Positions 12,354 through 42,147 of a DNA stretch of 64,000 nucleotides are shown piece after piece. The stretch lies in NCBI RefSeq assembly GCF_036373705.1, contig NC_089856.1, positions 26,932,798 through 26,996,797 on the forward strand. The letters run 5' to 3'. The notes beneath the pieces are model-generated. The model was not told the DNA's origin, searched no databases, and saw nothing but the letters and a program-made list of their open reading frames with translations. A program made the position numbers and the translations under genes. Within the stretch, counting starts at the first letter, position 1, and every line of letters starts with the position of its first letter. The DNA is from Amia ocellicauda. Its lineage: Eukaryota > Chordata > Actinopteri > Amiiformes > Amiidae.

Positions 12354-12592
12354 ATGGAGGGAGTGGGGGAGAACGACAGGGAGCAGCATAGCTCTGGTGG
12401 GCCCCAGCGGAGGAGGGAGCGGCAGGGCAAGTCTCCTAGGAGGCGGCGAGATGTGAAGAGGCCACAGCGGCAGCAGGAGGAAAAGGAGGAAAGAGAACGC
12501 CCATTGTTACCCAGGCAGCCAGTGATCTCTGAGCCCTCAACCCACAACTCGGAGTCTTCAGACTCTTCTGCGAAAAGAAGGGATGGGTGCAG
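12354..12592 (+). CDS. nadk: NAD kinase coding exon 1 (residues 1-79)
   Basis: ATG to the donor CAG-gtacat, 79 codons plus 2 nt. The product is rich in Arg, Glu and Gln, with clusters such as [11 protein letters not shown], then a Ser-rich acidic stretch (SESSDSS). It does not resemble the human NADK N-terminus beyond the last two residues, but the phase fits exon 2 exactly and the join restores the conserved Arg-Arg. Confidence 0.78.
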
Positions 12593-14490
12593 GTACATTA
12601 AATACAGAACTAAATTGACTGGGACTTTGCCCTGTTTAGCCTATACACCCAGGTGTGTCTGGGTCTGTTAAGTTTCTTTTGCTATTTTACCATTTCAAAA
12701 TCAGCCCTCTCTCTCAATTTTAAGAGTCATGTATGCTACAAAAAAAAGTATTTCCAGATGAATACATTTTTGTCAGCTATTATGTAAAACACAAAAACAT
12801 ACACACATTATCTACAGCAAGTGTCTCCAGTACCTGAAGAGATACAGGTCTTTAGGTTTCATTCCAGCTGCTATAACATTTAATTAATCGAAACCATGTT
12901 GATTTAATACATCAATATGAATGTGAACCTTAGTGATATAATCTGATTGACTAGGTATTTCCAGGATCAAGGTTAGGGACTGAATTTCAAATATACATGC
13001 AAATATTCTGTTGTATCTTTTACGCCTGAAACAAGTAATGTGTGTTTGGAAGGTCAAGAGGGTCTTGACCAAATAAAAACTTTGATAGAACTGCAAATCA
13101 CAAATTAAAAATTACATTAGTTTAAAAAAATATATATTTGTATGTGGTAGAAAACACATTTTCATTTTGGGATTGATGGGCAATTAAATATACATCTTTA
13201 GAACCATTTGACTAAGGAGACAAAGACCAAAGTATTATATTACATGGTTTATACAGGAGGTGTATTGACTACATGTATTATTTTTCTTTCTAACAAGAGG
13301 TGCATCCTGTGTATTGCAGTTTGGTTTACTCTTAATCCATACAATGACTGAATTGATTGGTGTTTTCTTTTCTTTTTCTCTTTCTTTGTGTCATTTATTT
13401 TATTTTGTTGTGCAGAAGACCTCATTTTCTACATGGACCATATCCAGCAACACACTTTGGACCCAAAGCCTGCATATTACCTAACCCGACTTCAGTTATG
13501 TAAGAGACTCTATTTTTTGATACAAAAACATATAAAAAATGAACAGAACAGAAATTTTATACTGAAAATAGCACTTACAAAATGAATCAAAGGCTGTATT
13601 CAAACCATAGTTTCTGCAAAAGTAAACAGTACAGTGTAATATATGTGTATATGTGTGTGTGTGTGTGTGTTTAACCTTTGTGTGTGATCCTGAGCCATTT
13701 ACTTGTTTTACAAGAACAGTTGCATTACCACAGATTATGTTGCAATTTTTTTATTTTTAGGATTGAAAGTGGAAATACCTTTTACCACAAACCACTAATG
13801 CTCAATAGATGGGTAACACGGTTTCTTTGATATATTCATGTTTGAAGATTGAAGTAATTTTTTCTCTTGGGGGAGAAAAAAAACAACACAGCAATGATGT
13901 ACCTTTTAAGATAAGCTTCAAGAAAGCAGAAAAGATCAGTTATGAAAAGATTGTCATCTTGGCTAAATTTGCAATTCATAAACCATGCAAATTCTACCAG
14001 CTGACGTGATACGTTCATCCAGATACAGTTATACAGAAAAAAATATTGTACGTTCATTGTGGCAATGTTCCTGCTATAGCACACAGTATGTTTATACATG
14101 AATTTGCTAACAGTTTTGAAACACATTATTAGGGCAACTGACCAAACTTTTTGCTGCACTGCAAAATCTTTTCCACATTTGCTGACCTCTGTTATTGCCT
14201 CTTGCTACATTTGCACCTTTAATGTACCACAGTTCCTAGACTGCAGACAGATACATTAAAAAGAGGGGCAACAAAGCTTAGAAAGTAACTATGTATATGT
14301 AATTGCAATCACTTTTACAGTAGAAGCCGTTCATTATGTTACAACATGGTCAACAACAAAAACTCAAACCAAGAAACAACCACTAGATACAAACATTACA
14401 TTTTTGTGTGTGAATAATTGAAGAGAACAAGCCCCGAAATAGATTATACCTTTTTGGTTTGTAAGTTTCAAAAGGGAAACTATCAGAGCA

Positions 14491-14534
<44 letters not shown>

Positions 14535-17500
14535 AGGGTAAAGCATTACAAAATAGAAAATAAACATACAATTAGGAATTTGAAAAATCCCAGAACACAC
14601 ATTAATTACACATTCTAGAACCTTGATTACATACACCAGTTTCACAGATAAGGTAAGGGCAAAGTTACAATACAAACCTGTGATTGGTTCGTGTAGGAAC
14701 TATGGACAATGGTGCTGGGTATTCCAAAGGTTCTGATGTGCTTGTGTGTGTGCACAGTCCACAGAAATCCTTCCTGCCCAGCACCAAATCCATACACCTG
14801 CAGAGATAGCAACTTACCATAGCTGACCTGGCACTAAAAATGCCATGTATCCATCCTCCAAACCAGGACACAGAAGAGAGGTAATGTATTTTGTGGCTCT
14901 CAGTCTATCAAATCAGTGAAATGTTTAAAACAGACATAGAAATGCAATCTCTCATCATGTTCTTCTATGTTTTGAAATGCATTTTACTGGAATAATGAGA
15001 AAAAAATGGTTGGCTGGAATTTGGACCCTGAAAGAGAAAGTTATACAAATATATTTGTATAAACCAGACTTTTACCAGAGACTCGCTGAACACTGTTACA
15101 CATAGTACAAAGGGTAATGAGATCATTATAAAGCAAAAGTTGAAAATAAGTATAAGTATAAGTAAAATAATAATTCAATAAGATTAATGTACTCTGTTTA
15201 GACTGAGAGCTCAGTATTCCATGGACATGGACAGTTATAACAGTATAAAATAGGTGTCAGAAGCAGAAGTAAAACAAACAGTGAGTCAATGTGTATCTAG
15301 AGCAATACTAAGTTGATATGTAAAGAAAATAATCACATTGATTTTGTAATCATACATTGCAGCAGTTAAACAGGAGTAGTGTCAATACTTTGCAGTGTCA
15401 ATCTTTACTTTATGTAAGGAAAAGGTTTTAAACTCCAGTTCCAGTTTACTTAATTAGTCTGATTACAAAGTTAATGAGCTACATTTAATACTTCTCTCCA
15501 GGCTCTAAATATTCTGTGGGTTCTATATCTATATATGGGAGCCTGCAGCATATTTTGAGTAATTAAATATAATAAAGAAACATGCATCTTAAATAAGCCT
15601 GGCTGAGAAAATAATGACATTCATTTAGTAGCTTGATTACTCCAGTTGGACCCAAAATCAGAAGACAACATGGCCCTCTGGGAACTGAGTTTGACACCCC
15701 CTAAAGACACACACTTAATGTATTGTTTTGTAGGGATTGCAACCCTTACTTGAATAGATGTAAATCGGAAGAGAAAAATAAATGTGTGATAAATGTGTGT
15801 GTTTTAAAGAAAGACTTAGAAAAGCATAGGGGTGTCCCACGGCTACAATGCGGTTGTCACTGTGTGCAGATGCTATAGAGCTACTATTCTGACTGCAGGC
15901 ACATCCAGGATCCAGCCAGTCAGCGACTGACTTGGAGTAAGCCTCCCGTCAATGTGCTGGTCATTAAGAAGATCCGCGATGAGAGTCTGCTGGAGCCATT
16001 CAAACAACTCTGCAGGTTCCTGATAGAGGTAACCCTCCCTGCCTGTGGCACCTATAACTCTGTAAAGTATCATTCAGAACAACACATTATACATTTATTT
16101 TATATAGTGCTTTTAATCAGGAACTGATCTTGGGGCCTTTTATAAATGCTAGTTTACAATGATAATTTTGAAAAAAAAAAGACTGATTCAGTTGCTGAAT
16201 GGTCTAAACCAAAGTGGGTGGGAATTCCCTAAAGTGAAGAATTTGATGAAGACTACAAGTTAGTTTGGCATGAGCATTTGTAGGACTGTTTGGAGACCAT
16301 TATCTTTTGGATTTGACACAAATGGCAAATTTATCAGATGGCTAACTATTAAGCGGATGGTTGTGGTATTTCCTTCCTTAGTAAAGCAGGTTCTGCCTTA
16401 ACCCACTGATTCAATCAGTTCACAGTCTTGCCAGAGAAGTAATGGGATTTACCTTCAGAGTTTAAAAGATAGAGCAGCTGACCCACACCTCTCTCTCAAA
16501 GCTAGCATTCCATTCCCCCAATACACCCCTCACCCTCCCTCTCCTTGCAGGAAAAGCAGCTTGTGGTTTATGTGGAGAAGAAAGTGGAAGAGGATGCCAC
16601 CCTCTCTAAGGACGAGGCATTTGGCTCCATCCGAAACCAGCTGTGCACTTTCAGAGAAGGTAGTGCAGCCCAGTGTGAGCCAAGGCAGTCGACGTGTTTT
16701 GCCTTTCACACTATTTACATTCAACCTAGCAGCAATCTCATTCATGCATGGCACTGGTTGATTTGCTTATCTGGGCTAATGGGACAATTAGTAATGAGGG
16801 CTGTGGCTCCCCATGTTGTGTAAGTTTCTGTGGTTGTGTTTTTAGATTCCCAGCTCTGAAGTCAGAACACAAATGCCATAGCCCAAATGTGTGTCTCACT
16901 TAGAATTCCAGATCATTCCAAATCCAAAACTGAAATATATTTAACAGCAATAACCTCACAAGTTCAAGGAGGATGTTAAAATAATCTAATGAAATGTTTG
17001 CCACAAGCCAGGGCAAAAATTTCAATAGACCAAGCTGCTATCATCATCGGCAAGCTGAAGTAGAGTTATGTTATCAACTGTAAAAATAAAAATAGATTGT
17101 GTGGGAAAATAAATAAGTGATCATGTGACTGGCTGGGCATTATACAGTAGTTATCTTCAGTCCTGATTCTGGACATACCCAGTCTTTCATATTTTGTATG
17201 TGTCTTTAATCAGAATTTAAGGATAATTAGGATGGTAAATGATTCAGTTATGTAATTGAGAGCTTAGTTGGACAGAAAACTAGAAACCTCGGGCATACAA
17301 GACTCAAGGTTGGAGACCCTTGCCTACCAAGGAAGTAATTCATTTCATTCTCGAAAAAAAAAAAAAAATACATGTTTAAAGCATTTTATCTTTTAACAGA
17401 GTTTTACTTGTTTTCCTAAACAGGCCCACTCACCCCGTTCTTAAAGCGATCCTTGCATATTAACGTTTCATTTCATAGACATTAGTTTTGTATTTCCAAT

Positions 17501-20500
17501 TAACAAGGCTGATAGCTAAAAGAGACAATCAGAGAAGAGGAGTGGTAGTGGGAATTCTGGCAGTTAACCACCAAGCAGAATAAAGTGCCATTTATGACCT
17601 TAATAAAATAATACAATTAAATTAAATAAATAGCTTGCAACGCATTGTTTCCCTTCAGCTTTGAAAACGAAAAAAGAAAGCCGCACGCCCTCCAAGCACT
17701 CCAAAATTAAAAACATTACCTGGTTTCGTTTTGCCTAATAAAATTAATTGTTTTTCATTTGAGTGTTTGAAGTGTGTGTGGCTTTCTTTTTCCTTTTCAA
17801 TTGAGATTCAGTTCTGTTGGCTTCTAATTTTGGATGTGCGTCCTCTTCCAAATATTCGGTTCTGTACTAACACTGTTTTTTCTTTTTCTTTCTTTTTTTT
17901 TGTAAAGGTTATGATGACATTTCGGATTGTATAGACCTGATTATCTGTCTAGGAGGGGATGGGACTCTGCTGTATGCTTCCTCTTTATTCCAGGTAAAAA
18001 GAGAGTAGCACAATGATCTTTAATAAAACTGTAGTTACATATGCCTTTCTTATCTAAAACTTAAAGATCCCAAAAGAGGACTTTAATGTAGATTAACTGT
18101 CAAACTCTTTTAATAAATTCAAGGATTGATCATTTTTTAAGATCTCCCAATGTAATTTGTCTATGCTCATTTACTGGTCTAAGCCATGCCTGGTAAATTG
18201 ACATTCTTGTGATCAGTTGTAAGCTTTCATTTATTTTGGAGCTACCAAGAAATATATATTTTCAGAACAAACATTGCTTACAATATTTCAGAGGTTTGGA
18301 AGAACAATAAAACAATATATAAAACGTCCTCTTGCCATTTAGACTCATCTATTTCATTTAGCCAGTGGTTCATTTATAAAGTAGGCACTGATAATGGCAT
18401 TGAAAAAATTTGTTATCAACCTCAACCTCTCCTGGTAAGAGGAGTGTTTTAGGCTTTATTTGTACTGTCAACATTACTGTTTGATTTACAGTGCCTTGCG
18501 AAAGTATTCACCCCCCTTGGCATTTTTCCTATTTTGTTGCCTTACAACCTGGAATTAAAATTGATTTTTTTGGGGGGTTTGTATCATTTGATTTACATAA
18601 CATGCCTACCACTTTGAAGTTGCAAAATATTTTATTGTGAAACAAACAAGAAATAAGACAATAAAACAGAAAACTTGAGCATGCATAACTATTCACCCCC
18701 CCAAAGTCAATACTTTGTAGAGCCACCTTTTGCAGCAATTACAGCTGCAAGTCTCTTGTGGTACGTCTCTATAAGCTTGGCACATCTAGCCACTGGGATT
18801 TTTGCCCATTCTTCAAGGCAAAACTGCTCCAGCTCCTTCAAGTTGGACGGGTTCTGCTGGTGTACGGCATAGTCATACCACAGATTCTCAATTGGATTGA
18901 GGTCTGGGCTTTGACTAGGCCATTCCAAGACATTTAAATGTTTCCCCTTAAACCACTCGAGTATTGCTTTAGCAGTATGCTTAGGGTCATTGTCCTGCTG
19001 GAAGGTGAACCTCAAAACTCAAATCTCTGGAAGACTGAAACAGGTTTCCCTCAAGAATTGCCCTGTATTTAGTGCCATCCATCATTCCTTCAATTCTGAC
19101 CAGTTTCCCAGTCCCTGCCGATGAAAAACATGGTGTTCTCGGGGTGATGAGAGGTATTGGGTTTGCACCAGACATAGCGTTTTCTTTCTGGCCAAAAAGC
19201 TCAATTTTAGTCTTATCTGACCAGAGAACCTTCTTCCATATGTTTGGGGAGTCTCCCACATGCCTTTTGGCGAACAGCAAACGTGTTTGCTTATTTTTTT
19301 CTTCAAGCAATGGCTTTTTTCTGGCCACTCTTCCGTAAAGCCCAGCTCTGTGGAGTGTACAGCTTAAAGTGGTTCTATGGACAGATACTCCAATCTCCAC
19401 TTTGGAGCTTTGCAGCTCCTTGAGGGTTATTGTTGGCCTTTTTGTTGCCTCTGATTAATGCCCTCCTTGCTTGGTCTGTGAGTTTTGGTGGGCGGCCCTC
19501 TCTTGCCAGGTTTTTTGTGGTGACATATTCTTTCCATTTTTGAATAATGGATTTAATGGTACTAATGGTGGGATGTTCAAAGTTTTGGATATTTTTTTAT
19601 AACCCAACCCTGATCTGTACTTCTCCACAACTTTGTCCCTGACCTGTTTGGAGAGCTCCTTGGTCTTCATGGTGCCGCTTGCTTGGTGGTGCCTCTTGCT
19701 CAGTGGTGTTGCAGACTCTGGGGCCTTTCAGAATAGGTGTATATATGCTGAGATCATTTGACAGATCATGTGACACTTAGATTGCACACAGATTAACTTT
19801 ATTTAACTAATTATGTGACTTCTGAAGGTAATTGGTTGCACCAGATCTTATTTAGAGGCTTCATAGCAAAGGGGGTGAATACATATGCACGCACCACTTT
19901 TCTGTTTTTTATTTTTTTCATTTCACTTCACCAGTTTGGACTATTTTGTGTATGTCCATTACATGAAATCCAAATAAAAATCCATTTAAATTACAGGTTG
20001 TAATGCAACAAAATAGGAAAAATGCCAAGGGGGGTGAATACTTTTGCAAGGCACTGTAGGCCTTACACTTTCCAGTTTCAATGAAAGGCAATGAAAAGAT
20101 CACTATGTTATGCATAACAATGTATTATTGTTTCATTATAAACATTAAGATGATGTACTGTTTTGTATGCTTGATCATATTATCTAATTTTAGTTGTTAG
20201 ATAAATAAATAAATAGAAGTCTGTCTGAACCATTTCCACTTCACTAAACCTTTTTTATGTTAAAAATATTGAATACTAAGAAGTGAATAATGTTTGTTTT
20301 GTTTTTGTTTACAGTATTTAATCATTTGAAATACAGCTCTAGAGCTTTTTTAATGTTTTTTGAGTAGAGATTAGAATTGTCTAACAATTGTCTGTCTGCA
20401 GGGCAGTGTCCCCCCCGTCATGGCATTCCATCTGGGCTCTCTGGGGTTTCTCACGCCATTTAAATTTGAATCTTACAAGACAGAAGTCGCCAAAGTTTTT

Positions 20501-23500
20501 GAAGGTATGGTGAGATCCCATGCTACATGTCGAATAGTCCTGATTCCCTCAGGTATCCATCCAGTTCTCCTCTCTTGCACCACATTTGTGGAATGAACTG
20601 CCCAAGAGCATTATTATACCTACACCGTGTCCTATCGCCTTTTGACACATCCATTTAGATTAGACCTGTATATTTTATACCTTAATTTAACACTGCAATG
20701 TAAAGGTGTTTTATTTTTAGTGATGCTCTTGAAATATTGTTTTATGAGAAGTGTTAGTGCAATTGCTATTTTATCCATACTTATTTGTTGCAAACATATG
20801 TTATGAAACATAAGTAAGTAGGCTAATGATTACTTACTTTTTTAGAATGCCAGGAACAGAAATATGTAATCATTACTTATTTTTTTAACAACCTTTTACT
20901 TTTCATAGTATTGCCAATTGCTATTTTATCGATATATGAAAAACAAGTAATGGGAACTGTTGCCTATTATCTATTATCGATGTACTGAGTTTAAAACTAA
21001 CATACAACCCAATCACGCTTCACTCCTAGTACAAGCACAACCAACAGGATGAACACTATCAGAGATTTTTAATATGCATTGCATTAATAATATTACAAAT
21101 AAAAACAATACAGAGTAACAGTTGCAAAAAGTGCGAAGTGTCTATGACAATTAAAAAAGTACATTATAGAACAACCTTTAAAAACATACAAGCACACCAT
21201 TAGATTCAATAAGTTCCTTCCCCTGCACTGCAATGCTCTATATCGCTGCAGCCCCGCTCCCTCTTGCTAAAATTGGAGAGAGAGCTGGGGGTGGGGGGGG
21301 TCCATGGCCAGGATGTCCTTCCCTCTGCCAAGTGGCTTAAGGCCAAAATACCTCTATTACTTTAATCTAAGTCTTCCACTGACTTCTATAGGGGGGTTGC
21401 CTGAACTAGCCTACTGAAGTAAACAGTGCATGATGAGATGTTCTGTATGTACTTTTTATTGATATATAAACATAAGTAAACATAAGTGTCATTAAACTGT
21501 GAAATTAAAATAAAGATAACGTAAGCATCACTAATGTTTTGAAAAACTGCCATATAGCCTATCTTCGTTCAGTGACTGACTTCCCTGCACAAATCCATAG
21601 CAGATTTTTGAGCCCTCCTGCTTCATTTTGTCAATTACCTTTTATCCTCGTATAAAGAATAAGTAATGAGAACTATTGTCATATGTTATTGTATCGATGT
21701 GTATGTAATGGTGTTCTCCTGTAAATCCTTATATTCAGAAATTCTGTGAAATAAGTAACCATTACTTATTTAGTGTAAAACAGGGTTATAGAAAAAAGGA
21801 ATGAGTAACCATTACTTATTTATTGAAAAAATGTAACTGAAAAAAATACTTTAATAAAAAACAGGCAAACAGAAAAAGTAACCAACAGGGAAACTTAAAA
21901 ATAAGTAACCATTACTTATATTTTGAAAACCAGTAAACAGAAATAAGTAAGCATTAAGGAATGAGTAACCATTATTAATAATTGAAAAATAAAGAAGAAT
22001 ATAAAAATAAGTACTCATTACTTATTTTTCAAAAGAAAGGGAAATAAGGAATGAGTAACCATTACTTAGTTTTTGATAACCATGAATCAGAAATAAAAAG
22101 ATAAGTAAACATTACTTATTTTGCAGAAAATAACTAAAACAGTAACAAGAAATAAGTATCCATTATTCATTTATTGAGAAACAGTGAAAAATATAACAAT
22201 TATTATAATTACTTATTTTGAGAAAAATCTGAAATAAGTAATAAGTAACCATTACTTATTTTGTGAAAAATAAAGAATGCAATCAACTTCACGGAGGTTG
22301 TGAACATTACACATGCAAAGACTGCATGAACAGTGAAAATCCAGGGCTTAATTTGTGCCAGATCATGCCTCTCAATTTGAGACTGTCTGCGCTCTAGGAC
22401 CTCTTAGCTCACAGCTCTGGCACCCCCCCCCTGTAACATGAAAAAATGTACATTGGGTTACAAACCCAGTGAGTGTTTTGTTTTGTTTTGCTTTGTTTAT
22501 TTGCTTGTTTTATACCTGAAGTTTACCCTTTTAAGGCCAAGGCTTTTTTAATTTCACACCTTGAAATAAAGCCATTTATTTTTTCACCAAAGTTCCGAGT
22601 GGAATCTGTGGGCCAAGTTTAATTATTGCCGCCCTTCCAGAGCTCGGCAAAGAAGTGGAGGGTGACAAACCTACATATTGAATTGATGATCATTAGCACC
22701 TGTTTGGTAAAATAGTTTAATCATACACATGACTATATGCTTACAAATTCCCTGACTTTTTGCAAGTGTATCTAGAAGAATTGATGCTGTTTTGAAGGCA
22801 AAGGGTGGTCACACCAAATATGGATTTGATTTAGATTATTCTTCTGTTCACTCACTTTGCATTTAGTTAATTGATAAATATAATCTATTAACATGTCTAT
22901 TTTTGACACTATATCTAAATGAACAGGAAGTCATTTGCAGATATCTCTAAATGATTTGCAGGTATCTCTAAGTCATTTAAAGATATCTTCAAATCATTTA
23001 GAGATATCTGCAAATCATTTAGATATCTTTACAAAGCACCTGATTTAGATATCTCTAAATGGTTTGCAGATATCTGTAAATGATTTAAAGATATCTTTAA
23101 ATGACTTAGAGATATCTCAAAATATTTAAAGATATCTTGAAATGCATTTAGAGATATCTCTAAATTATAATTTGGCTTGCCATAGCGCTCCGGCACCTTG
23201 CAATTTACAAATTGAATCTTCATTATATTTTATAGTTGTGGTTGTTGAGATAAATAAAATCAACAGTAGTAGTAGTACTCTTGCTATCTTTTTGTGACCT
23301 TTTGTGATCACGTTTGTGACGATTAGATAGCAGTCATGTACGCAAGTCATGCTGTTTTTGGCAATAATAATCAGTTTCACTACCAGTTGAAGGGGGATGA
23401 GATCTGTACTCCCACCTGCTGGACATTGCGGGGGAGTACAAAAGCCAAACCTTGAGTACATGGACTGTTTTAGGATTGCTGAAGAAAATGCATTAATTAA

Positions 23501-26500
23501 ATGAACTTAAACAATGAATAGAGAATGTGTTTCACCTGTTTTTTAAGATTAACAAAGTAAAACCTATAATGAAACTTGTCCCTACTGCAATGTTGAACTC
23601 TGTCCCCAGGCTACCACTGGGATCATGTTGCACATGTTGTGGGAATGCCCTGATGTGGTATTCTGGAATCAGGTCTTCTCAACAGTATCTACTATTCTTG
23701 ACAAAGACATTCCTTCTTCTCCTAGGATATTATTATGGAATAATGTGTTTTTTCTTCAACAATAATTGATATAATTGGCTGACCTCAAGCAGCCAAAACA
23801 ATTATTGCATTCCGGTGGCAAATTCTACACTTTCTTCTCTGGCCTCAGTGGACTGCATGGTTCTGTGGAACAAGGATGAGGACTATACTGGTTTGGAAGA
23901 CAGTTGCAGACTTTGATTTGTTAGTTTTGATGCATTGTATTGATACTGTTTTTCTTTTCTTCCTGTGAGATCCTTATTGGGGTGGATTATTTATCACATT
24001 GCATCTTCTTCACAATTAACAAGGAGTGTTCTCAGCAGTTACACTTAACCCTTTTTCTTTTCTTTATAAAAATAGGTTACAGTACATGTTTACAGATAAA
24101 CAATTGTTAATTTAATGGAAACAAATGCTGCATTATAGTCTACAATAAGCAATACATTTAGTGGTACCATACTTACAAGTCCACATATTTTTTAAAGTAG
24201 CCTATGTTTTGGTAGAATTCTTGTGCAGATATATTTTCTTTTAATTACAATCTTGGCAAAACCAAAAAATAAAGTTTTTCTTTGCTCCACACCTTTCAAA
24301 AATGCATCTGAAGGAATTGGTCAGCCCTTAGCACAGTTGAAACCAGCTATAAACAAATGTATTGTTTTCTAACGTTGGCAGGTATGTGTTTTATATGTAT
24401 GTTATGTGTAAAAAACTATCAATTTAAAACTGCTATACTGCACGATTTTCTTACCTGCTGTGCTTAAATGTTAATGGTTGCTTGTTGTAGTCTGATGTGG
24501 TCATTTTTACATTGAAAATCGATGTTTCAGTGTAAAATACCCATACAGAAGGATTTACAAGTTGCCGTAGACAGACACAGCTGCTGTTAAGAAAGAGCTG
24601 CACTGTTTCTCTGTGACAAAAAAGTAAAGCAGATGACCAGGGGACAGAAACCAATTGCCCAATAAATAAACAAATAAAAAAACTTGCAAAATTTAGAAGC
24701 ATGTGGCCACTACATGTCATGTTTACCGAATGATTGCCTTCCTGGATGAACTCATCCAAGATTTCATTTGTGAACGTTGTCAGCATTTTGAAATCCTAGA
24801 GATCAAGGCCTGTCATGTTGAGGCTCAGCTTGTTTATCTGCGCTCTATTAGTGATATGGAAGAATTAGTCAATCAGCATTAGAGAGATGGTATGCACACC
24901 AAAACCTAGGAGAGCTGAGACCTTAGAGCAGGAAAGAGTACAGAACTGCTGGGTTACAGTAGGTTGTAACCGCAGAAAAGGGTGCACACAACCCTTAAGA
25001 GACATCCCAAGAGCTAGAAATGCCCAACAGGTTCCAAATGGTGGACACAGAGTTGGACAGTGACAGCTCCGATGGGTGATGGGAGGGCAGTTGAGCACCA
25101 GAGTGTCCACTCCCCCCCAGAACAGGGAGGTAGTTATAGTAGAAGACTCGATTCTTAGAGGTGTAGATCACACATTGTGTTCTAGTGATAAGGAGACCCG
25201 CATGGTATCTTGCCTGCCTGGTGCTGGTGTAGACGAACTACTGGCCAAAGCCAGGGGGAATCCACTGGTCCAATTTGGAACCAATAACATAGGAAAAGGA
25301 AGGGCAGAGGTTCTGCAAGACAAATGTAAAGAGTTAGGAAAGAAACTAAAGAGCAGAACCTCCACTGTAGTTTCCTCTGAAATACTCCTCTAAATCCTCC
25401 GGTACCACGTGCATGGCCAGGGAGACAGGCAGAGATTAGAAAGTTTAACATGTGGTTGAAATCTTGGTGTAGGGAAGAGGGTTTTAGGTTTATGGAGCAT
25501 TGGTCTTTCTTCTGAGATAGTTGGGACCAGTACAAACTGGATGGTCTACATCAAAACAGAAGGGGGGCTAATGCATTGGGAGAGAGTATGTGTAGAGTAA
25601 TTGAGAATCTTTTAAATTAGGGACTGGGGGGCAGGGAGCTCTGACAATGTTTTGTCTCATAATGGTGTTTCACATTGGCACTTTTAATAAGTGCCACGGT
25701 TTCTGAACATATGAGACACACTGGTTTAGTGCTCCCTGTGGGAAGTATGAACAGAAATAAGTCTGTCCATTCTGGATTAAATGCTCTGTTTTCACTGTCC
25801 ACTTTTCTTTTTTTGGAGAGCGCCATTTGTTCCTTATTTTTCTCTCCCTTTCTCCGTCTCACCCATCTTTTTCTCAACTTTTTCCGGCGCAGTCGTCTGT
25901 ATCTCTCCCTTTGTTTTCTCTACATGTATTGCTATCTCTATTTTTCTTTCTACCATCTTTTCATGTGTAACTTGCCTCTAACTCTCTCATCTGTCTGCAC
26001 TGTAGAGTTCAATGTTTACCGCCTGCAAGGTACAGACTTGATTGGCTGAGTGGTATCACGTGGGATGGCTTAATTCACATGCAATTGGTCTATGCGTTTC
26101 CTCATCCACTAAACCACTACCGTAAAGACTACAAAAGCTGCGCTGGGTAAAACAAGAAGCGCCCCGTCAGGTATTAAAACATAACCTTCTGTTTTGGCTG
26201 TAGGTCCGGGTCCGTATGGGACAGCTTCTGGGTCCGGACCCGGACCTCTGATCTACAGCCTTAGGCTGAATTAATGGAGGATAAACTGCCATGTACAATT
26301 TACAAACAATTACTTTAAATACATTCAAACGAGTAGAGTTAACCCACTATCAGTAGCAGTAAGTTTGATCCAGTGTATTTACCTCTAGGTTTGAGGAGGC
26401 ATCTTGGTGCTTATATCCCAGTTTGTGAACAACACTCCTGCTGAGGAAAAGAATATAAACCAGCACAACTGCAGATCTTGAGGGTTTTTAGTGTAACAGG

Positions 26501-26834
26501 TCAAATCACAGGTTTTATGTGACTATAAAGCCTTCAGGATTTAAGCCCTCGAGGACTGGAATTACCTACCCCTGATGTAAAAGGCTATACATGCACTGTG
26601 CTGAGTGTCTTTTTGTTTGTTTGTGTTATTTTGCAGGGAATGCAGCAATTATCCTGCGCAGCCGTTTGAAAGTCAAGGTTGTGAAGGATATATCGCACGT
26701 GCAGGAGGCTGCCCAGCACTACAAGGCAGAGGAGAATGGGCTGGTGCCACATAGCCACATGGACAGTGAAGCTGGGAAGATCACTTTACAGTTACAGGTA
26801 GTTCTGGATTCTTCACTGAAAGAGGCCTTAACAC

Positions 26835-26882
<48 letters not shown>

Positions 26883-26968
26883 TTGAGTAGAAGAAGAAGA
26901 AACTGATGATGATATTATTATTATTATTATTATTATTATCATCATCAGTTTCTTCTTCTTCTACTCAA

Positions 26969-27011
<43 letters not shown>

Positions 27012-29946
27012 AATAATTCTCTCACAATGAAAACCTCACAACCTACTCTAAGTTAAGATTTTATTGGCCCATCCTGTGTATATATTGTGTGTTTGGGTGG
27101 GAAAAAAAAAAACTAGTTGTATCCTTCCCCCCCTCCATAAAGTCCAAAGAAATGTCTTGGCTTTACAGGTGTGTAAGGCAAGGTGAAATGTATCACAAGG
27201 TCCTGAAATGTATTCTCTGACACTTTGCATCCATGCCGTCTGTGATACTTGGATAGCATTCAAACATTAATTTTGAGAACTGTTATAGATAATCATATAA
27301 ACATTCTTTCTGTTTTAGTTTTAGAAAATCCAATCAAAGGAAAAAGGAATTGTACACCCACTCTCTCTCTTATAATGCATCTTCAGTTTCTACAGTTAAG
27401 TGATAATAGGCCTTGAATAATTCCCTCAGGTGCTCAATGAGGTGGTTGTTGACAGAGGCCCTTCTTCATACCTGTCCAACGTGGATTTGTATCTAGATGG
27501 CAGGCTGATCACGTCTGTGCAGGGAGACGGTGAGTGCCTACTGGGAGAGCAGACCTTGTATTTAATGTGATGTCTAGGCTATCGTTTTCATCCTGGATAT
27601 TCATCTGATTACCATTCAGCCCTCAAGGACTGTAGATCCCTTGATTTTAGTGACATTTAAATGGATCGATAACTAACATCCAGTGGCCAGTCTTCAGAAA
27701 CTGATGACTAAGGGGTGAATCAGAAAACCAACTGGATTCAGGCTCACAAGGTCCATTGTTTCACCTATTTGTATGCTTCAGATTTTCATGCCACTTGAGT
27801 GCTTAATAACTACCTAATTCAGCTTTCTGAATTCTGTCTCCTTGGTCCAGGGGTGATCGTGTCCACGCCCACAGGCAGTACTGCATATGCGGCGGCAGCT
27901 GGAGCCTCCATGATCCACCCCAACGTTCCGGCAATAATGGTCACCCCCATCTGCCCTCACTCACTCTCCTTCAGACCCATTGTGGTGCCAGCTGGGGTGG
28001 AGCTCATGGTGAGAGAGAGAAAGAGAGGAGGAAGGGAGGGAGAATTTGACTGAATAATGTCCCGTTTCCACTGGCGGACGCGTCCGGCCCCTGACGCTTA
28101 AACGAGTGTTTCCACTGACGCGTCCATGTTTTGTGGACGGTTAACTATCTGGTGTCAGACGTGGCTGTAAGCGTCCATCACACCCACTGAGGAAATACTT
28201 CGCTTTCAGAAGCGGAGGTGTGTGCTAGACTTGTAGACAGACAGGGAAGAGATCAGATACATTGTGACGGAAGATATAATCTCAAGTGCCCTATGAGATC
28301 ACGAAGAAATTACAGTTTTATTAGCAGCATGGAGTGAAATCCACGTACAGAAACAATGACTGCTTACAGTTAATATCAGTGTAGTAAAAACTTGGATTTC
28401 ACAGGACCGGTGCAGTGCACTGACTAGTTAAAAATAAATTGAAGGATAATAATCAAAACGGTAGCAGACGATTTTTTAAATATTTTATGAACAACTGGAT
28501 GGTGTTTCAGGCTGTGTTTTGTGAATGGTGTGCAGGAATAAATAAATACAGCAGATCTGGGTTTCCCTCTAAAACATTAAGGACTGGTTTAATAAATGCA
28601 TCCATAAACGCCATGACTGGAACGTGCACACTTTAGTTAAATTATAACCTGCTATATTGTAGCTGAATGATTAATCGTGAAACGTGTGTATTTTGTTTCA
28701 AATGTAATTTGCCCTGCTTAAGGATGTCTGTTAAGTAAATTATAAATAATATGGCAAAAAGTATTGTTTGCAGTTATAAATCTGCAGAAAGAGTAATAAG
28801 TTAAGGGAGCCATGTTGTGCCATTTAAAATACATATATACTATCACAAATGATGATGATGATGATAATAATACTAAATAGCAAATATGTATTGTTATTGT
28901 TGCACATGGAAACGTATTCTTATGGGGACGTGCTTGTCTGAGTATAATGTTGTCTATACACGTTTAGCTCTTCCTAATCTCTCTTAACAGAAACGTGCAT
29001 TTATTATGCTGTTTACAATCATGTAAAGCAGAAAGAATAAAATAGACACAAAAGTCCTCTCCACGGCTGGCTGTATAGCTCGTAGTGTTGTTTCTGTCTT
29101 TGTTTTTAAAACTAAACACAAACCAAACTCACAATCGCTCTGCTCCTCCCATAAGAGGGGATGGACTTCACAATGGCCTGGTTTTACAAAAAAAGCTCTG
29201 GGACCATGGCATGGCACGACACGGACGCTTAAGCCAGTGGAACCGAGGCATAAGTGAGGGGAACATGACTGACCGACTGACAAAGAGCGAGCGAGAGGGA
29301 GAGGGGGACGGAGGGAGATGCAGAAAAGTGGAGGGTACAAAAAGAACGAGAGAGGCACTGAAAAAGATTGAGAGTTATTCAGAAGACCCTTTGACTCCAT
29401 TTAACCTGTTTCAAGCCACATTACTTACATGAATTCAAGATGTATTGCAGAATTAATACTGAACCCTGCTGTCTATGTAATTAGAATGCAATGCAATGCA
29501 TATTTGTAATATAATTTTCTAGTTTGAGTCAAGTTTCCATACACCTCATATTACTATTATTTTTTAGTAGTAATTGAAAGTTCTGTTTTTACCTCCAGAT
29601 AATGTTGTCTCCCGGGGCCAGAAACACAGCTTGGGTGTCATTCGATGGGAGAAAGAGACAGGAGATTCAGCATGGTGACAGGTATACTCAGTGAGTTTGT
29701 AAACTGCAGTCAAGTAGCATGATCATGCAGAAAATGGTGGTTAATTAACTTCTGTTTTTCTGTTTTTCTTCCCTCAAACATTCTAGCATTAAAATCACAA
29801 CATCCTGCTATCCCGTCCCCTCCATTTGTTGCCATGACCTGGTGTATGACTGGTTCGAGAGTCTAGCCGAGTGTCTGCACTGGAACATTCGCAAGAAGCA
29901 GACAAGACTTATGGATGTCACTGACTCCTCTGACACAGAGAACTGA
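12354..29946 (+). CDS. nadk: Cytosolic-type NAD kinase, NADK paralogue (11 coding exons, 470 aa)
   Basis: NAD kinases phosphorylate the 2'-hydroxyl of NAD with ATP to give NADP and so feed the NADPH pool. This is the NADK type, not the mitochondrial NADK2. The 11 coding exons total 1,413 nt and join in frame throughout. Residues 1-79 are basic and low-complexity; family similarity begins at RR-x-x-x-LHGP (80-88) and continues to the end. Key motifs are intact: GGDGT at 203-207 (nucleotide binding and catalytic Asp-205), NE at 307-308, and PTGSTAY at 344-350. The segment 267-304 is variable, as in human. It lies head-to-head with GPR160 and tail-to-tail with SEC62. The human cytosolic NADK maps to 1p36, not beside these genes, so this is probably a second NADK gene. 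Candidate AATAAA signals are at 30328-30333 and 30377-30382. The family call is near certain; the paralogue status is inferred. Confidence 0.95.
13416..13499 (+). CDS. nadk: NAD kinase coding exon 2 (residues 80-108)
   Basis: Acceptor tgttgtgcag, donor AT-gtaaga. It encodes the conserved block [20 protein letters not shown], which in human reads LHGPCPVTTFGPKACVLQNP. Confidence 0.92.
13648..14532. repeat. (GT)n and (TA)n microsatellites in NAD kinase intron 2
   Basis: GT run at 13648-13670 and TA run at 14495-14532. The TA run explains small tyrosine/isoleucine-repeat open frames on both strands. Confidence 0.9.
15899..16028 (+). CDS. nadk: NAD kinase coding exon 3 (residues 108-151)
   Basis: Acceptor ctgactgcag, donor GAG-gtaacc. 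It encodes [12 protein letters not shown] and [20 protein letters not shown], the start of the kinase domain. Confidence 0.97.
16551..16659 (+). CDS. nadk: NAD kinase coding exon 4 (residues 152-188)
   Basis: Acceptor ctccttgcag, donor G-gtagtg. It encodes [11 protein letters not shown] and NQLCTFRE, matching the human VYVEKKVLED and CTFRE blocks. Confidence 0.97.
17908..17993 (+). CDS. nadk: NAD kinase coding exon 5, GGDGT motif (residues 188-216)
   Basis: Acceptor tttttgtaaag, donor CAG-gtaaaa. It encodes [20 protein letters not shown], with the signature GGDGT at 203-207. Confidence 0.98.
18489..20056 (-). mobile_element. Tc1-like DD34E element in NAD kinase intron 5 (1,568 bp)
   Basis: Terminal inverted repeats CAGTGCCTTGCGAAAGTATT at the left and the complement at the right, with TA at 18487-18488 and 20057-20058. 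It lies antisense to the host gene, inside the intron 17994-20401. The length is typical of full Tc1 elements. Confidence 0.93.
18707..19670 (-). pseudogene. Tc1 DD34E transposase remnant
   Basis: Read from right to left, the start [20 protein letters not shown] is near 19670, a middle part with [11 protein letters not shown] follows at about 19200-19230, and the catalytic end FQQDNDPKH to [13 protein letters not shown] lies at 18880-19015. Exactly 34 residues separate the second Asp from the Glu. The gene is split over at least three frames by indels, so it is dead. Confidence 0.88.
20402..20504 (+). CDS. nadk: NAD kinase coding exon 6 (residues 217-251)
   Basis: Acceptor tgtctgcag, donor G-gtatgg. 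It encodes [20 protein letters not shown], nearly identical to human. Confidence 0.98.
20560..20665 (+). repeat. L2-type LINE reverse transcriptase scrap
   Basis: A short plus-strand frame reads [14 protein letters not shown], resembling the C-terminal PPxLWNxLP block of L2/CR1-clade reverse transcriptases. It ends at a TGA. Only about 100 bases remain. Confidence 0.5.
21740..22270. repeat. About 50-bp tandem repeat with a perfect palindromic core
   Basis: Cores start near 21750, 21800, 21900, 21960, 22006, 22050, 22100, 22150 and 22240, so the spacing is close to 50 bp with degenerate units between. The best core is AATAAGTAA, a three-base spacer CCA, then TTACTTATT, a perfect inverted repeat. 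Looser copies of the same core appear upstream at about 20812-20885, 20945 and 21655. No coding potential. Confidence 0.85.
22935..23165. repeat. 21-bp tandem array of GATATC palindromes
   Basis: GATATC or a one-base variant starts at 22940, 22961 (GGTATC), 22982, 23003, 23022, 23048, 23069, 23090, 23111, 23131 and 23153. Spacings are 21, 21, 21, 19, 26, 21, 21, 21, 20 and 22. Between centres lie AAATGATTT or AAATCATTT blocks, themselves near-palindromic. The array is open in one minus-strand frame only because 21 is a multiple of three. Confidence 0.9.
23580..23960 (+). repeat. L1/Tx1-type LINE, 3' end of reverse transcriptase ORF
   Basis: A plus-strand frame reads [19 protein letters not shown], then [10 protein letters not shown], typical of the C-terminal region of fish L1-clade ORF2 proteins (a cysteine-containing H-x-L-W-x-C-P block). 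It is broken by several stops and a frameshift. Confidence 0.72.
24700..25616 (+). pseudogene. LINE ORF1-like remnant with coiled-coil and SGNH-esterase-type domain
   Basis: The 5' part (24720-24880) has a Cys-rich start ([11 protein letters not shown]) and a coiled-coil-like stretch ending in a stop. A second part (25076-25393) reads [11 protein letters not shown], then [15 protein letters not shown] third, in another frame (25395-25616), reads [14 protein letters not shown], then [14 protein letters not shown]. This order of blocks (GDS, G-x-N, D-x-x-H) is that of SGNH hydrolases, which occur in ORF1 proteins of some LINEs. The Gly of GDS is Glu here. At least two stops and one frameshift make it non-functional. 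The parent family is inferred. Confidence 0.55.
25617..25877 (-). pseudogene. hAT transposase fragment with BED-like zinc finger
   Basis: The frame reads [20 protein letters not shown], then [20 protein letters not shown] and YETKH. This is the N-terminal zinc-finger region of hAT transposases and their domesticated relatives (GTF2IRD2 and ZBED-like proteins). The catalytic part is missing: the frame ends at the junction with the LINE remnant near 25630. Confidence 0.72.
26202..26247. repeat. Short GC-rich inverted repeat near the hAT fragment
   Basis: AGGTCCGGGTCCG at 26202-26214 and its exact complement CGGACCCGGACCT at 26235-26247, with 20 bases between. CTGTA before and TACAG after extend the symmetry with a small gap. 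It stands out in AT-rich DNA and may be the terminal part of the hAT element. Confidence 0.6.
26637..26797 (+). CDS. nadk: NAD kinase coding exon 7 (residues 251-304)
   Basis: Acceptor ttattttgcag, donor CAG-gtagtt. It begins [17 protein letters not shown] and then carries a variable linker of about 36 residues. Confidence 0.96.
26836..27009. repeat. Long hairpin built on an AAT/ATT microsatellite
   Basis: The 34 bases at 26881-26914 (key parts TTGAGTAGAAGAAGAAG and CTGATGATGATA) are the exact reverse complement of 26937-26970. Outside them, (AAT)n on the left pairs with (ATT)n on the right, giving a stem of about 74 bp around a 22-base TTA loop. It begins 38 bases after the exon 7 donor of the NAD kinase gene. 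Confidence 0.92.
27010..27429. other. Rest of NAD kinase intron 7
   Basis: Nothing recognised apart from an A run near 27102-27111. Intron 8 (27530-27850) likewise holds nothing I can name. Confidence 0.5.
27430..27529 (+). CDS. nadk: NAD kinase coding exon 8, NE motif (residues 305-338)
   Basis: Acceptor ttccctcag, donor G-gtgagt. It encodes [20 protein letters not shown] and ends QGD before the split Gly. Confidence 0.98.
27851..28008 (+). CDS. nadk: NAD kinase coding exon 9, PTGSTAY motif (residues 338-390)
   Basis: Acceptor ccttggtccag, donor ATG-gtgaga. It encodes [20 protein letters not shown] and the following PNVPAIM and [13 protein letters not shown] blocks. Purine-rich (GAGAGA) sequence follows the donor. 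Confidence 0.98.
28061..29246. mobile_element. Possible 1.2-kb non-autonomous DNA transposon in NAD kinase intron 9
   Basis: CGTTTCCACTGGC at 28063-28075 is matched by the complement of GCCAGTGGAACCG at 29233-29245 (12 of 13 bases). GACGCTTAA and ACGCGTCC motifs recur near both ends, and TTTCCACTG is repeated at about 28109. There is no transposase. The GC-rich, CpG-containing ends differ sharply from the AT-rich interior. The superfamily is unclear; no target duplication could be fixed. Confidence 0.45.
28700..28760 (+). repeat. L2/SINE tail-like scrap
   Basis: CTTAAGGATGTCTGTTAAGT resembles the shared L2/SINE tail seen at 30830-30895. Weak match, within the element at 28061-29246. Confidence 0.3.
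29599..29681 (+). CDS. nadk: NAD kinase coding exon 10 (residues 391-418)
   Basis: Acceptor tttacctccag, donor AG-gtatac. It encodes [20 protein letters not shown] and then QEIQHGD. Confidence 0.97.
29787..29946 (+). CDS. nadk: NAD kinase coding exon 11 and stop (residues 418-470)
   Basis: Acceptor aacattctag, stop TGA at 29944-29946. It encodes [18 protein letters not shown], matching the human C-terminal DWFESLAQCLHWNVRKKQ. The human poly-Glu tail is replaced by a short acidic end (VTDSSDTEN). Confidence 0.97.
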
Positions 29947-32442: not shown

Positions 32443-33663
32443 CACTCACCTAAAGGATTATTAGGAACACCTGTTCAATTTCTCATTAATGCAATTATCT
32501 AACCAACCAATCGCATGGCAGTTGCTTCAATGCATTTAGGGGTGTGGTCCTGGTCAAGACAATCTCCTGAACTCCAAACTGAATGTCTGAATGGGAAAGA
32601 AAGGTGATTTAAGCAATTTTGAGCGTGGCATGGTTGTTGGTGCCAGACGGGCCGGTCTGAGTATTTCACAATCTGCTCAGTTACTGGGATTTTCACGCAC
32701 AACCATTTCTAGGGTTTACAAAGAATGGTGTGAAAAGGGAAAAACATCCAGTATGCGGCAGTCCTGTGGGCGAAAATGCCTTGTTGATGCTAGAGGTCAG
32801 AGGAGAATGGGCCGACTGATTCAAGCTGATAGAAGAGCAACTTTGACTGAAATAACCACTCGTTACAACCGAGGTATGCAGCAAAGCATTTGTGAAGCCA
32901 CAACACGTACAACCTTGAGGCGGATGGGCTACAACAGCAGAAGACCCCACCGGGTACCACTCATCTCCACTACAAATAGGAAAAAGAGGCTACAATTTGC
33001 ACAAGCTCACCAAAATTGGACAGTTGAAGACTGGAAAAATGTTGCCTGGTCTGATGAGTCTCGATTTCTGTTGAGACATTCAGATGGTAGAGTCAGAATT
33101 TGGCGTAAACAGAATGAGAACATGGATCCATCATGCCTTGTTACTACTGTGCAGGCTGGTCGTGGTGTTGTAATGGTGTGGGGGATGTTTTCTTGGCACA
33201 CTTTAGGCCCCTTAGTGCCAATTGGGCATTGTTTAAATGCCACGGCCTACCTGAGCATTGTTTCTGACCATGTCCATCCCTTTATGACCACCATGTACCC
33301 ATCCTCTGATGGCTACTTCCAGCAGGATAATGCACCATGTCACAAAGGTCGAATCATTTCAAATTGGTTTCTTGAACATGACAGTGAGTTCACTGTACTA
33401 AACTGGCCCCCACAGCCACCAGATCTCAACCCAATAGAGCATCTTTGGGATGTGGTGGAACGGGAGCTTCGTGCCCTGGATGTGCATCCCACAAATCTCC
33501 ATCAACTGCAAGATGCTATCCTATCAATATGGGCCAACATTTCTAAAGAATGCTTTCAGCACCTTGTTGAATCAATGCCACGTAGAATTAAGGCAGTTCT
33601 GAAGGCGAAAGGGGGTCAAACACAGTATTAGTATGGTGTTCCTAATAATCCTTTAGGTGAGTG
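32443..33663 (+). mobile_element. Tc1/mariner DD36E element, copy 2 (1,221 bp, intact gene)
   Basis: Terminal inverted repeats CACTCACCTAAAGGATTATT at both ends, same length as copy 1. The two copies differ at only scattered positions over the whole element, which suggests recent mobility. Inserted in TA-rich microsatellite DNA. Confidence 0.94.
32591..33631 (+). CDS. Tc1/mariner DD36E transposase, uninterrupted (346 aa)
   Basis: Catalyses excision and TA-target insertion of its element. The N-terminal half has two helix-turn-helix regions (about residues 5-45 and 70-115) and basic stretches (RRPHRVP, NRKKRL). The catalytic triad is Asp-155 (AWSDES), Asp-246 (FQQDNAPCH) and Glu-283 (NPIEHLWD). 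There are 36 residues between the second Asp and the Glu, so it is DD36E, the spacing of the Incomer (IC) family, and not the DD34E of classical Tc1. The frame is full length with no stop. A possible weak point is [10 protein letters not shown], where copy 1 and the family usually have QSPDLNP. Whether it is active cannot be told from sequence. Confidence 0.93.
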   Translation: MGKKGDLSNFERGMVVGARRAGLSISQSAQLLGFSRTTISRVYKEWCEKGKTSSMRQSCGRKCLVDARGQRRMGRLIQADRRATLTEITTRYNRGMQQSICEATTRTTLRRMGYNSRRPHRVPLISTTNRKKRLQFAQAHQNWTVEDWKNVAWSDESRFLLRHSDGRVRIWRKQNENMDPSCLVTTVQAGRGVVMVWGMFSWHTLGPLVPIGHCLNATAYLSIVSDHVHPFMTTMYPSSDGYFQQDNAPCHKGRIISNWFLEHDSEFTVLNWPPQPPDLNPIEHLWDVVERELRALDVHPTNLHQLQDAILSIWANISKECFQHLVESMPRRIKAVLKAKGGQTQY

Positions 33664-39462: not shown

Positions 39463-39989
39463 TTAAGTTTTTTTGTGTAAAGGCTTTGACTCGTCTTCAT
39501 CCTCGTCCTCTTCCTCATACTCGCCCTCCTCCTCCTCCTCCTCCTCCTCCTCCTCTTCCTCCGTGTGCTGCTCCAGCTCCTCCCTCGTGATCATCTCAAA
39601 GTCGTTGCCGTTGCTGTGCTGAGATCCCTCGTCCTCCCGCCGGTCGCTGTCCGTGTCCGACTGCCTCTCCGCCCCTGAGCCCTCTGCTGCCGAGCTGATG
39701 GCTGCCTTACCGTCCTCCTCCTCTCCTTCCTTCTTCTCGCCGTCGGACTTCTCCTCACTGTCGGACTTCTGGCCCTTCACTGCCACCGTGGCGGTCGGCA
39801 AAGGCTCGGCTGTGTCCGCCTTGTCCACCACAGCCTTCTTAGAGTCCGAGCGAGGGCCAGTGTACTCATGGGTGTAGAGAGGCCTGAAGGAGTCAATGAA
39901 TCCCACATCAGCAGTCAAGTTGGGGAGGAACCAGAAGTGATGGCGCCCACCAGTAACCACCCAAATGATCAGGAACAGAATACACCGAG
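39463..39989 (-). CDS. sec62: SEC62 coding exon 8 and stop (residues 244-418)
   Basis: Acceptor ctcgtctccag, stop TAA at 39463-39465. Encodes RCILFLIIWVVTGGRHHFWF, the acidic tail, the LIR FEMI and an E-rich end coded by a CTC/CCT microsatellite (about 39498-39560). Confidence 0.97.
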
Positions 39990-42116
39990 CTGGAGACGAG
40001 AAAAGGACAAATAAATAAGTTCATAAATAATAAACTGCAGTGTTCAGAGCTTCTTGTGTGATAGATTTTGCTTGTGAAGAGAACAGATCAGGCTACTTAC
40101 CAACTGCAAGCATAAGGATACTGGCAACAAAGCATCCAGCTGCAACACTCAGATAGTACACGCCAACGCGCATTTCAGCTGGCCATAACGGGAACAGGGT
40201 GGCTGCGATCACTGCGATCACTATCACAAAATAACACAAAAGTTTGAATGCAAATAAAGGCAGATTCATCACAAACCACCATCTTTATACATACATTACA
40301 GACATCAACATAGATGCATCTATCTTCTACAGCTTCTATCAGGTAGATAACTTGACTTTTCTGTCAATAACATATGAGACTTGCTGAGTGTAACATTTTC
40401 TATTAAAACTAGCACCATGGTGAATGTCTTAAGCATCCTCACATAGGCAATCCCTCATCTGTTAACCTTAATCTTGGATAATGAATGCTTGACTAGTTTC
40501 AATAGAGAGGATTTTCAATTTCCTCTTGCAGAGTTGATTAACACTTTCTATAGAAAACTATGAATTAATAAGAACTCACTATAAAGCAGGGATTTTGCTT
40601 TCAAGCTCCAATTAAGTAGGGAGGACTGTATTCAGATGTTAAATTGATGGACACAGCCCTGAAAAAGCCCGCTCATCTTTATTTGCAATTTTACAGTTAC
40701 CGCTGCCCCCCTTTTTCTAGAGAACTTAGATTTGGCTCATTTAGAATTATTTTTATGTGCCAATTATATAAAATACATTATAAACAATTTACTGAATAGC
40801 AGTCATAAAAACTAAAAACAAAGTCCCAAACACCCTTTTACTGTGAAAATAAAATATGCAGCACACTTCTAAAATCTATGATCTTTTTAAATATTCCCTT
40901 TGGATCACTATATGATCTAATTACCATCTGAAGAAAGTTTGTATAAACTAAACACCAACCTAATATCAGGCCCATGGCAAATGTTTTAAAGTGAACTGGG
41001 TCATAAATCCAAACATATACCTGCAGAGAGAATAAATAAGTGGTTATCAACAATGACAAAGTACATCTATTAACACGGAGGTGTGCAAGTAAAAAACAGG
41101 CACGTGAGCATATCTCCTATTATTTAGTGTGTTTTTCTTTTCACTTTATATCTATAACATTTATGGCAGTCTGACAAGATATGAAATGTATTAATTTAAT
41201 AAGCAAGTAGCGGTCATTCTAAATGACCTTTGGAAATAATATGGAATACTGATTAGGCTTTTGTCTATCTTCAAATACTAATATATTCATAATGCACCCT
41301 ACAATGGAGTTCAGGAGTGATCTAGAGACATGCAATTAATGCTGACACGAATTTAGCCCAGTGTCAGAATGATATTTTGTCAGCTTCCTTGACTTACTTG
41401 CTTGCTTATTATCTAAAATGATTATGCAATAAGAGGGCATTCAAGGTCTAATTGCAGAATGGTATAGTTATAAAACTGGAAAATGTGGCACTGCCAACGG
41501 TATGATACTTTTAAATAACTGACCTCACTACCATCCAAAAACAACTGCTCATCATGTGGCTCCAGTTTGAATTTTTTCTTAGTCTCTTTTTTCTTCTTTG
41601 GCGTTCCAGGACTTTCATCCTAAAGAGATGCATGGATTTAGACTGTGTTTCCACTATAACTATTAAAAACATAAGATACACAGTATTAAACAGCTGGACA
41701 GAGAAACAAGGAATTCCAAATATGTCAGTGTGTATGCCAGTATGTCAATCAACTGTAGATTTGATTAAAAAGGTAAACGTAACAGGACGTGATGCAAATG
41801 TTTCTGTATAGCTCAATAATAAAGGAAATGGACTTATCATTGAATGTTTCCAATTTGTGATTTTAATTAACTATGCTGATTTATGACTCTCGTATTGCCA
41901 CAGGAGAGATGCAAACAGACACAGCTTATTAAATGTACCTGTAAAGACTATCTGCTTTTTACGCTGTATGGAGCACTAATGCATAACCCTCTAGAGCTGA
42001 CAGACACCTTGGTAAGGCACCGGACAGAGCCAATCAACCCAGGCAGGAGCAGTCGTGCACCAGAAAATCCCAGTCTAAGTCAATTATGACTATAAGTGCA
42101 CATTCTAACCAGGTGA

Positions 42117-42147
<31 letters not shown>

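What the first reader, a model, noticed from the sequence alone, without database searches (positions are those of the whole stretch)
12354..29946. A complete second-type NADK gene between GPR160 and SEC62, likely a genome-duplication paralogue lost in human
The sequence shows an intact 11-exon, 470-aa cytosolic NAD kinase with all motifs (GGDGT, NE, PTGSTAY). Its neighbours GPR160, SEC62 and SAMD7 are adjacent at human 3q26.2, where there is no NADK. Human NADK is at 1p36.33 near SAMD11, GNB1 and PRKCZ; these have paralogues SAMD7, GNB4 and PRKCI at 3q26. That is what an ancient duplication with loss of the 3q26 NADK copy in the human line would leave. It would mean this fish has an extra cytosolic NADP source with its own regulation.
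Basis: partly seen in the sequence, partly recalled or inferred. Interest (0 to 1): 0.75.

Follow-up and report, generated by a model that had tools for sequence, protein, structure and literature searches.

The report
Second NAD kinase gene in fish
This fish carries two intact genes for cytosolic-type NAD kinase; the one in the window is most likely a copy left by the ancient vertebrate genome duplications that the human line has lost, and its altered front end suggests it is controlled differently.

Summary
In detail: window 12354-29946 (+) carries an intact 11-exon, 470-aa NAD kinase with GT-AG junctions and the catalytic motifs. A genome search found one other cytosolic-type NADK, on contig C24, between CDK11 and GNB1 as expected of the human NADK orthologue. 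That copy is closer to human NADK (core 315/385 identical) than to the window copy (282/386) and has the human-type first exon. So this is no translocation and no recent duplicate (dS saturated). C7 (window) and C24 share three other gene pairs: GNB4-like/GNB1, PRKCI/PRKCZ, SAMD7/SAMD11-like. NADK sits inside, so an early-vertebrate genome-duplication origin is the best reading (0.85). A tree could not settle it: with yeast and bacterial outgroups all three rootings fit equally. The gene is not new: a teleost paper lists nadkb with sec62 and gpr160 (PMC6325677). What is added: both copies occur in a genome where the neighbours tested show no teleost-type doubling, so nadka/nadkb probably predate the teleost duplication; and the window copy lacks the human N-terminal kinase-site motifs (prediction only).

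The parts
12354..12592 (+). NADK exon 1 (start codon; N-terminus unlike that of human or C24 NADK)
   Evidence: the open frame begins at 12348 after a stop; no significant match in the C24 region or elsewhere in the genome
13416..13499 (+). NADK exon 2 (RRPHFLHGP...; Phe where human has Ser64)
15899..16028 (+). NADK exon 3
16551..16659 (+). NADK exon 4
17908..17993 (+). NADK exon 5 (GGDGT motif)
20402..20504 (+). NADK exon 6
26637..26797 (+). NADK exon 7
27430..27529 (+). NADK exon 8 (NE motif)
27851..28008 (+). NADK exon 9 (PTGSTAY motif)
29599..29681 (+). NADK exon 10
29787..29946 (+). NADK exon 11 with stop codon
2739..3833 (-). 7TM-like single-exon ORF, read as GPR160
39583..44510 (-). SEC62, exon matches to recalled human SEC62
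50659..50778 (-). SAMD7 SAM-domain exon match

Best explanation
The window gene is a working cytosolic-type NAD kinase (ATP + NAD+ to NADP+) and the ohnologue of human-type NADK, made when the blocks now at human 1p36.33 / C24 and 3q26.2 / C7 separated in the early vertebrate genome duplications. Ray-finned fishes kept both (teleost name nadkb); the human line kept only the C24 type. Shown: intact gene, second copy at the human-type locus, paired flanking families, saturated synonymous divergence with low dN. Inferred: catalytic activity (from motifs and identity), timing, loss in human. Predicted only: lacking the basophilic motifs of the human N-terminus, it is probably not activated by Akt-type phosphorylation and supplies NADP under other control.
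For: Intact 11-exon model; best PDB matches are human NADK. 21 protein matches in the 988-Mb genome fall in two places only, C7 and C24:19199068-19214627. On C24 CDK11, NADK and GNB1 lie in this order, all minus, as in human 1p36.33 (human order recalled). Paired neighbours: GNB4-like C7:40.72 Mb / GNB1 C24:19.22 Mb; PRKCI C7:26.884 Mb, 44 kb left of the window / PRKCZ C24:20.40 Mb; SAMD7 in the window / SAMD11-like C24:17.34 Mb. Under uniform placement a stray copy would fall in the 145-kb C7 cluster with probability 1.5e-4, in the 13.9-Mb block with 0.014 (intervals chosen after the fact, the 145-kb one bounded by an unverified PHC3-like hit). Core identity C24-human 315/385, C7-C24 282/386, C7-human 279/387; 8 of 11 exon lengths equal. 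dN 0.19-0.20, dS 1.7-2.9 over 386 codons. Teleost nadkb is listed with sec62 and gpr160 (PMC6325677 section 6).
Against: The rooted tree does not support it: the best tree joined C7 with C24 (support 62/31); C24+human was 0.48 log units worse (AU p 0.30), i.e. no resolution. At the 52 sites where C7 alone differs and an outgroup has a residue, outgroups favour C7 at 14 and the human/C24 state at 10; where human alone differs (15 sites), 8 favour human and 3 the fish state: noise. The C7 branch is faster (51 against 14 private core changes, chi2 21), so its distance cannot date the split. In the 200 kb round C24 NADK only 2 of 7 other genes sought were found (CDK11, GNB1; not SSU72, aPKC, RER1, UBE2J2, DVL1). 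The SAMD11-like match is one 41-residue exon, and which G-beta is which on C7, C20 and C1 was not tested. Human loss was not tested.
Confidence: 0.85

Rival explanations
1. A later DNA-level duplication in the ray-finned line copied NADK, introns included, into the SEC62-GPR160 gap by chance, followed by fast evolution.
For: The tree does not exclude it (best tree C7+C24, support 62/31), and the C7 branch is accelerated.
Against: The site lies among paralogues of the other copy's linked genes, improbable by chance. C24 and human share the first exon and two one-residue gaps against C7 (direction of change unknown), and C24 is nearer to human than to C7.
Confidence: 0.1
2. The pair stems from the teleost genome duplication, as the names nadka/nadkb suggest.
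For: Only the naming.
Against: The searches showed one high-identity set each for GNB1, GNB4-like, PRKCI, PRKCZ, SAMD7 and SAMD11-like (lists for GNB and PRKC were capped), unlike a genome holding teleost duplicates; and the two NADK loci have different neighbours, which in human lie on different chromosomes (human map recalled).
Confidence: 0.03
3. Translocation: the only NADK orthologue moved to the SEC62 locus.
For: None found.
Against: A second, human-like NADK lies between CDK11 and GNB1 in the same genome.
Confidence: 0.01

Closest known systems
teleost nadkb (PMC6325677, section 6)
   Same: Listed with samd7, sec62, gpr160, skila, prkci and phc3; here SEC62 and SAMD7 exons and the GPR160-like ORF are in the window and PRKCI is 44 kb away.
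   Different: No teleost sequence could be compared here; the section read says nothing more on NADK.
human NADK (PDB 8kgc, 9cr3, 3pfn)
   Same: Core 279 of 387 residues identical, same motifs.
   Different: First exon not recognisably related (forced alignment 7 of 44); no R-x-x-S/T motif in the first 107 residues, Phe at the Ser64 position.
C24 NADK of the same genome
   Same: Same 11-exon layout, 8 of 11 exon lengths equal.
   Different: C24 has the human-type N-terminus (30 of 57) and lies between CDK11 and GNB1.
NADK2 (mitochondrial)
   Same: Distant relative.
   Different: E 4e-4 only; not searched for in this genome.

Membership tests
Cytosolic-type (cyto-clade) NAD kinase | NAD_kinase and NAD_kinase_C domains over curated cut-offs | tested here: met
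   68.2 and 132.2 bits against 25.5 and 23.7
Cytosolic-type (cyto-clade) NAD kinase | catalytic motifs GGDGT, NE, PTGSTAY | tested here: met
Cytosolic-type (cyto-clade) NAD kinase | closer to human NADK than to NADK2 | tested here: met
   5e-192 against 4e-4
Cytosolic-type (cyto-clade) NAD kinase | enzyme activity and cytosolic location | not testable with these tools
   needs a bench assay
2R ohnologue of human NADK | lies in a block whose other genes are paired with those round the orthologue | tested here: met
   GNB, aPKC and SAMD7/11-like pairs on C7 and C24; pairs chosen beforehand, not a blind census
2R ohnologue of human NADK | gene tree splits before the fish-tetrapod split | tested here: inconclusive
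   three rootings within 0.5 log units
2R ohnologue of human NADK | absence of the partner in human | not tested
   human gene order recalled; no human genome on hand
Teleost-duplication (TGD) pair | both copies in doubled versions of one ancestral block | tested here: not met
   different blocks; no doubling seen of the neighbours tested
Recent lineage-specific duplicate | low synonymous divergence | tested here: not met
   dS 1.7-2.9

The most novel reading that the evidence does not exclude
The two vertebrate cytosolic NADKs split duties after 2R: the human/C24 type is held back by its N-terminus and released by growth-signal kinases, while the SEC62-linked type lost (or never had) that switch, carries a basic RRRR run that could be a nuclear localisation signal, and makes NADP outside PI3K-Akt control, perhaps in the nucleus. 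The line leading to human would then have lost an Akt-independent NADP source. A point against: the C24 copy itself has Ala at the human Ser44 position and no strict R-x-R-x-x-S motif, so Akt control may not hold in this fish at all.
Probability: 0.2. Interest if true: 0.55.

Novelty: new member of a known kind. Interest (0 to 1): 0.35.

Why it matters
If right, the teleost names nadka/nadkb mislead: they would be early-vertebrate ohnologues, so zebrafish nadkb would not be a co-orthologue of human NADK, and work on it should treat it as a gene that humans lost. A 2019 NADK phylogeny (PMC6675116; passages with Table 1 seen) lists no vertebrate duplication there. The pair also offers a natural comparison for the N-terminal self-inhibition reported for NADK.

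Tried and rejected
The family search PF01513 on the own genome gave no match, probably because single exons are too short; the protein search found both loci. Outgroups: viral contigs scanned three times (no relative; 2 loci at 32% identity, not used) and genome contigs twice (none; 80 loci kept of 506, bacterial by title). Of those 80, 53 gave an ORF by my motif filter; I named 16, of which 7 were among the 53 and entered the tree with POS5, human, C7 and C24: no resolution. Paper searches: nadkb with zebrafish (1), SEC62+GPR160+NADK (0), nadka/nadkb (12,824, swamped by other words, 20 listed), NAD kinase+ohnolog+vertebrate (0), nadkb whole word (2), Akt and NAD kinase, 3q26/1p36/paralogon/two rounds/PRKCI (14, 10 listed, none on NADK by title), nadk+sec62 (4), nadka+zebrafish whole word (0). 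The Hox13 count meant to settle teleost or not did not complete. Mitochondrial NADK2 was not searched for. No structure was predicted, since human NADK is solved.

Full report
What is there. The window carries a complete NAD kinase gene on the + strand. Eleven exons between 12354 and 29946 splice to 1413 nt and 470 aa, with GT-AG at all ten introns and no internal stop. Against the PDB it matches NAD kinase chains 8kgc and 9cr3 with E 5e-192 (human by comparison with recalled human NADK) and NADK2 only at 4e-4; both Pfam NAD kinase domains pass their cut-offs. SEC62 exons and a SAMD7-type SAM exon follow on the other strand; a 7TM-like ORF read as GPR160 precedes it (weak on its own).

A second copy in the same genome. 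A protein search of the 988-Mb own assembly gave 21 matches at E <= 1 (24 of 24 candidates scored), 11 on C7 (the window) and 10 on C24. The C24 gene spans 19199068-19214627 on the minus strand; its 11 exons give 447 aa, and 8 of 11 exon lengths equal those of the window gene. In the 200 kb fetched round it, CDK11 lies on one side and GNB1 on the other, all on the minus strand. That fits the human 1p36.33 order (CDK11, SLC35E2, NADK, GNB1; recalled; SLC35E2 not tested). Of seven non-NADK queries run on those 200 kb these two were found; SSU72, the aPKC kinase, RER1, UBE2J2 and DVL1 were not. So the C24 gene is the human-type NADK and the window gene an additional one.

How the three relate. 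Over the core, C24 and human agree at 315 of 385 positions, C7 and C24 at 282 of 386, C7 and human at 279 of 387. At the N-terminus C24 and human agree at 30 of 57, including RGRAK-x-RSLSASPALG and RTRSLHGP. The window gene's first exon finds no significant match in the C24 region or the genome; forced into alignment it agrees with C24 at 15 of 48 and with human at 7 of 44. C24 and human share two one-residue gaps against C7, while human alone lacks one further residue; the direction of these changes is unknown. Private changes in the core: C7 51, C24 14, human 18, with 38 sites all different and 264 the same. C7 is therefore both distant and fast. Synonymous sites are saturated (dS 1.7-2.9) and dN is 0.19-0.20 over 386 codons, so the split is old and the proteins have been under purifying selection.

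Origin. C7 and C24 share other families as pairs: a GNB4-like set at C7:40.72 Mb and GNB1 at C24:19.22 Mb, with two further G-beta sets on C20 and C1 and a more distant, GNB5-like one on C4 (which of the C7, C20 and C1 sets is GNB2, 3 or 4 was not tested, the C7 name follows its place); PRKCI at C7:26.884-26.889 Mb and PRKCZ at C24:20.40-20.43 Mb; SAMD7 in the window and a SAMD11-like exon of 41 residues, 71% identical, at C24:17.34 Mb. Weaker SAM matches at C7:26.84, C24:23.56 and C1:62.42 Mb look like polyhomeotic genes, a possible fourth pair that I did not verify. That these families are two-round ohnologues is recalled. NADK sits inside this pairing; under uniform placement a stray copy would land in the 145-kb C7 cluster with probability 1.5e-4, in the wider 13.9-Mb block with 0.014 (both intervals were drawn after the fact).

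What the tree says. With yeast POS5 and seven bacterial NADKs as outgroups (11 rows, 289 columns) the three vertebrate rows form a supported set (96/96), but their order is open: C7+C24 best at 62/31, the other two arrangements 0.47-0.48 log units worse, AU p 0.32 and 0.30. I found no animal outgroup in the collections on hand. The early-vertebrate origin therefore rests on gene order and on the closeness of C24 to human, not on a resolved tree.

Which fish. The searches showed one high-identity set each of GNB1, GNB4-like, PRKCI, PRKCZ, SAMD7 and SAMD11-like (the first two lists scored only part of their candidates). That fits a ray-finned fish outside the teleosts; 988 Mb with contig numbers up to 29 among the hits would fit a gar (inference). 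The Hox count that would have settled it did not complete.

What is known. A 2019 study of ApoD clusters (PMC6325677; [quoted passage not shown] The gene is thus already annotated. An NADK phylogeny (PMC6675116; passages) lists no vertebrate duplication in Table 1 as seen; single-species duplications are left out of that table. My searches showed no paper that states a two-round origin of the pair; the library holds open-licence papers only.

How it probably works. Motifs and core identity make NAD phosphorylation very likely. [quoted passage not shown] the sites Ser44/46/48 and Ser64 are recalled. In the first 107 residues of the window protein a pattern scan found no R-x-R-x-x-S/T, no basic-basic-x-S/T and no R-x-x-S/T; in the first 88 residues human has one R-x-R-x-x-S/T and three R-x-x-S/T, C24 none and two. 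At the human Ser44, 46, 48 and 64 columns C24 has Ala, Ser, Ser, Ser and the window protein Ser, Asp, Ser, Phe (the first three in a forced alignment). So the window protein has lost the basophilic setting, but the C24 copy has also lost the strict Akt motif, and Akt control in this fish is itself unproven. The simple prediction is an NAD kinase outside that control. The basic run RRRR at residues 29-32 could serve nuclear import; that is a guess.

Verdict. Observation confirmed; interpretation largely borne out by gene order but not by a tree, and the gene is not new. The useful point is that the teleost names nadka and nadkb most likely hide a pair that predates the teleost duplication.

Noticed in passing
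The one read (L127, 518 aa) has a Pfam kinase domain and, by eye, an N-terminal hydrophobic stretch.
   Followed up: partly
window 971-1912 (-) and 32591-33631 (+): Two Tc1/mariner-type transposase ORFs, 97% identical over 313 aa; the second is an open 346-aa frame.
   Followed up: partly
window about 18480-20060, inside NADK intron 5: A Tc1-like element with transposase pieces on the minus strand (read by eye) sits inside the gene.
   Followed up: no
window 21955-22122 and 22939-23165: Two tandem arrays in NADK intron 6: a 94-bp unit (1.8 copies) and a 21-bp unit (10.7 copies).
   Followed up: no
own genome C7:26838067, C24:23555493, C1:62424726: SAM-domain matches (49-53%) that may be polyhomeotic genes (PHC3, PHC2, PHC1), a possible further ohnologue set linking C7, C24 and C1.
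   Followed up: no
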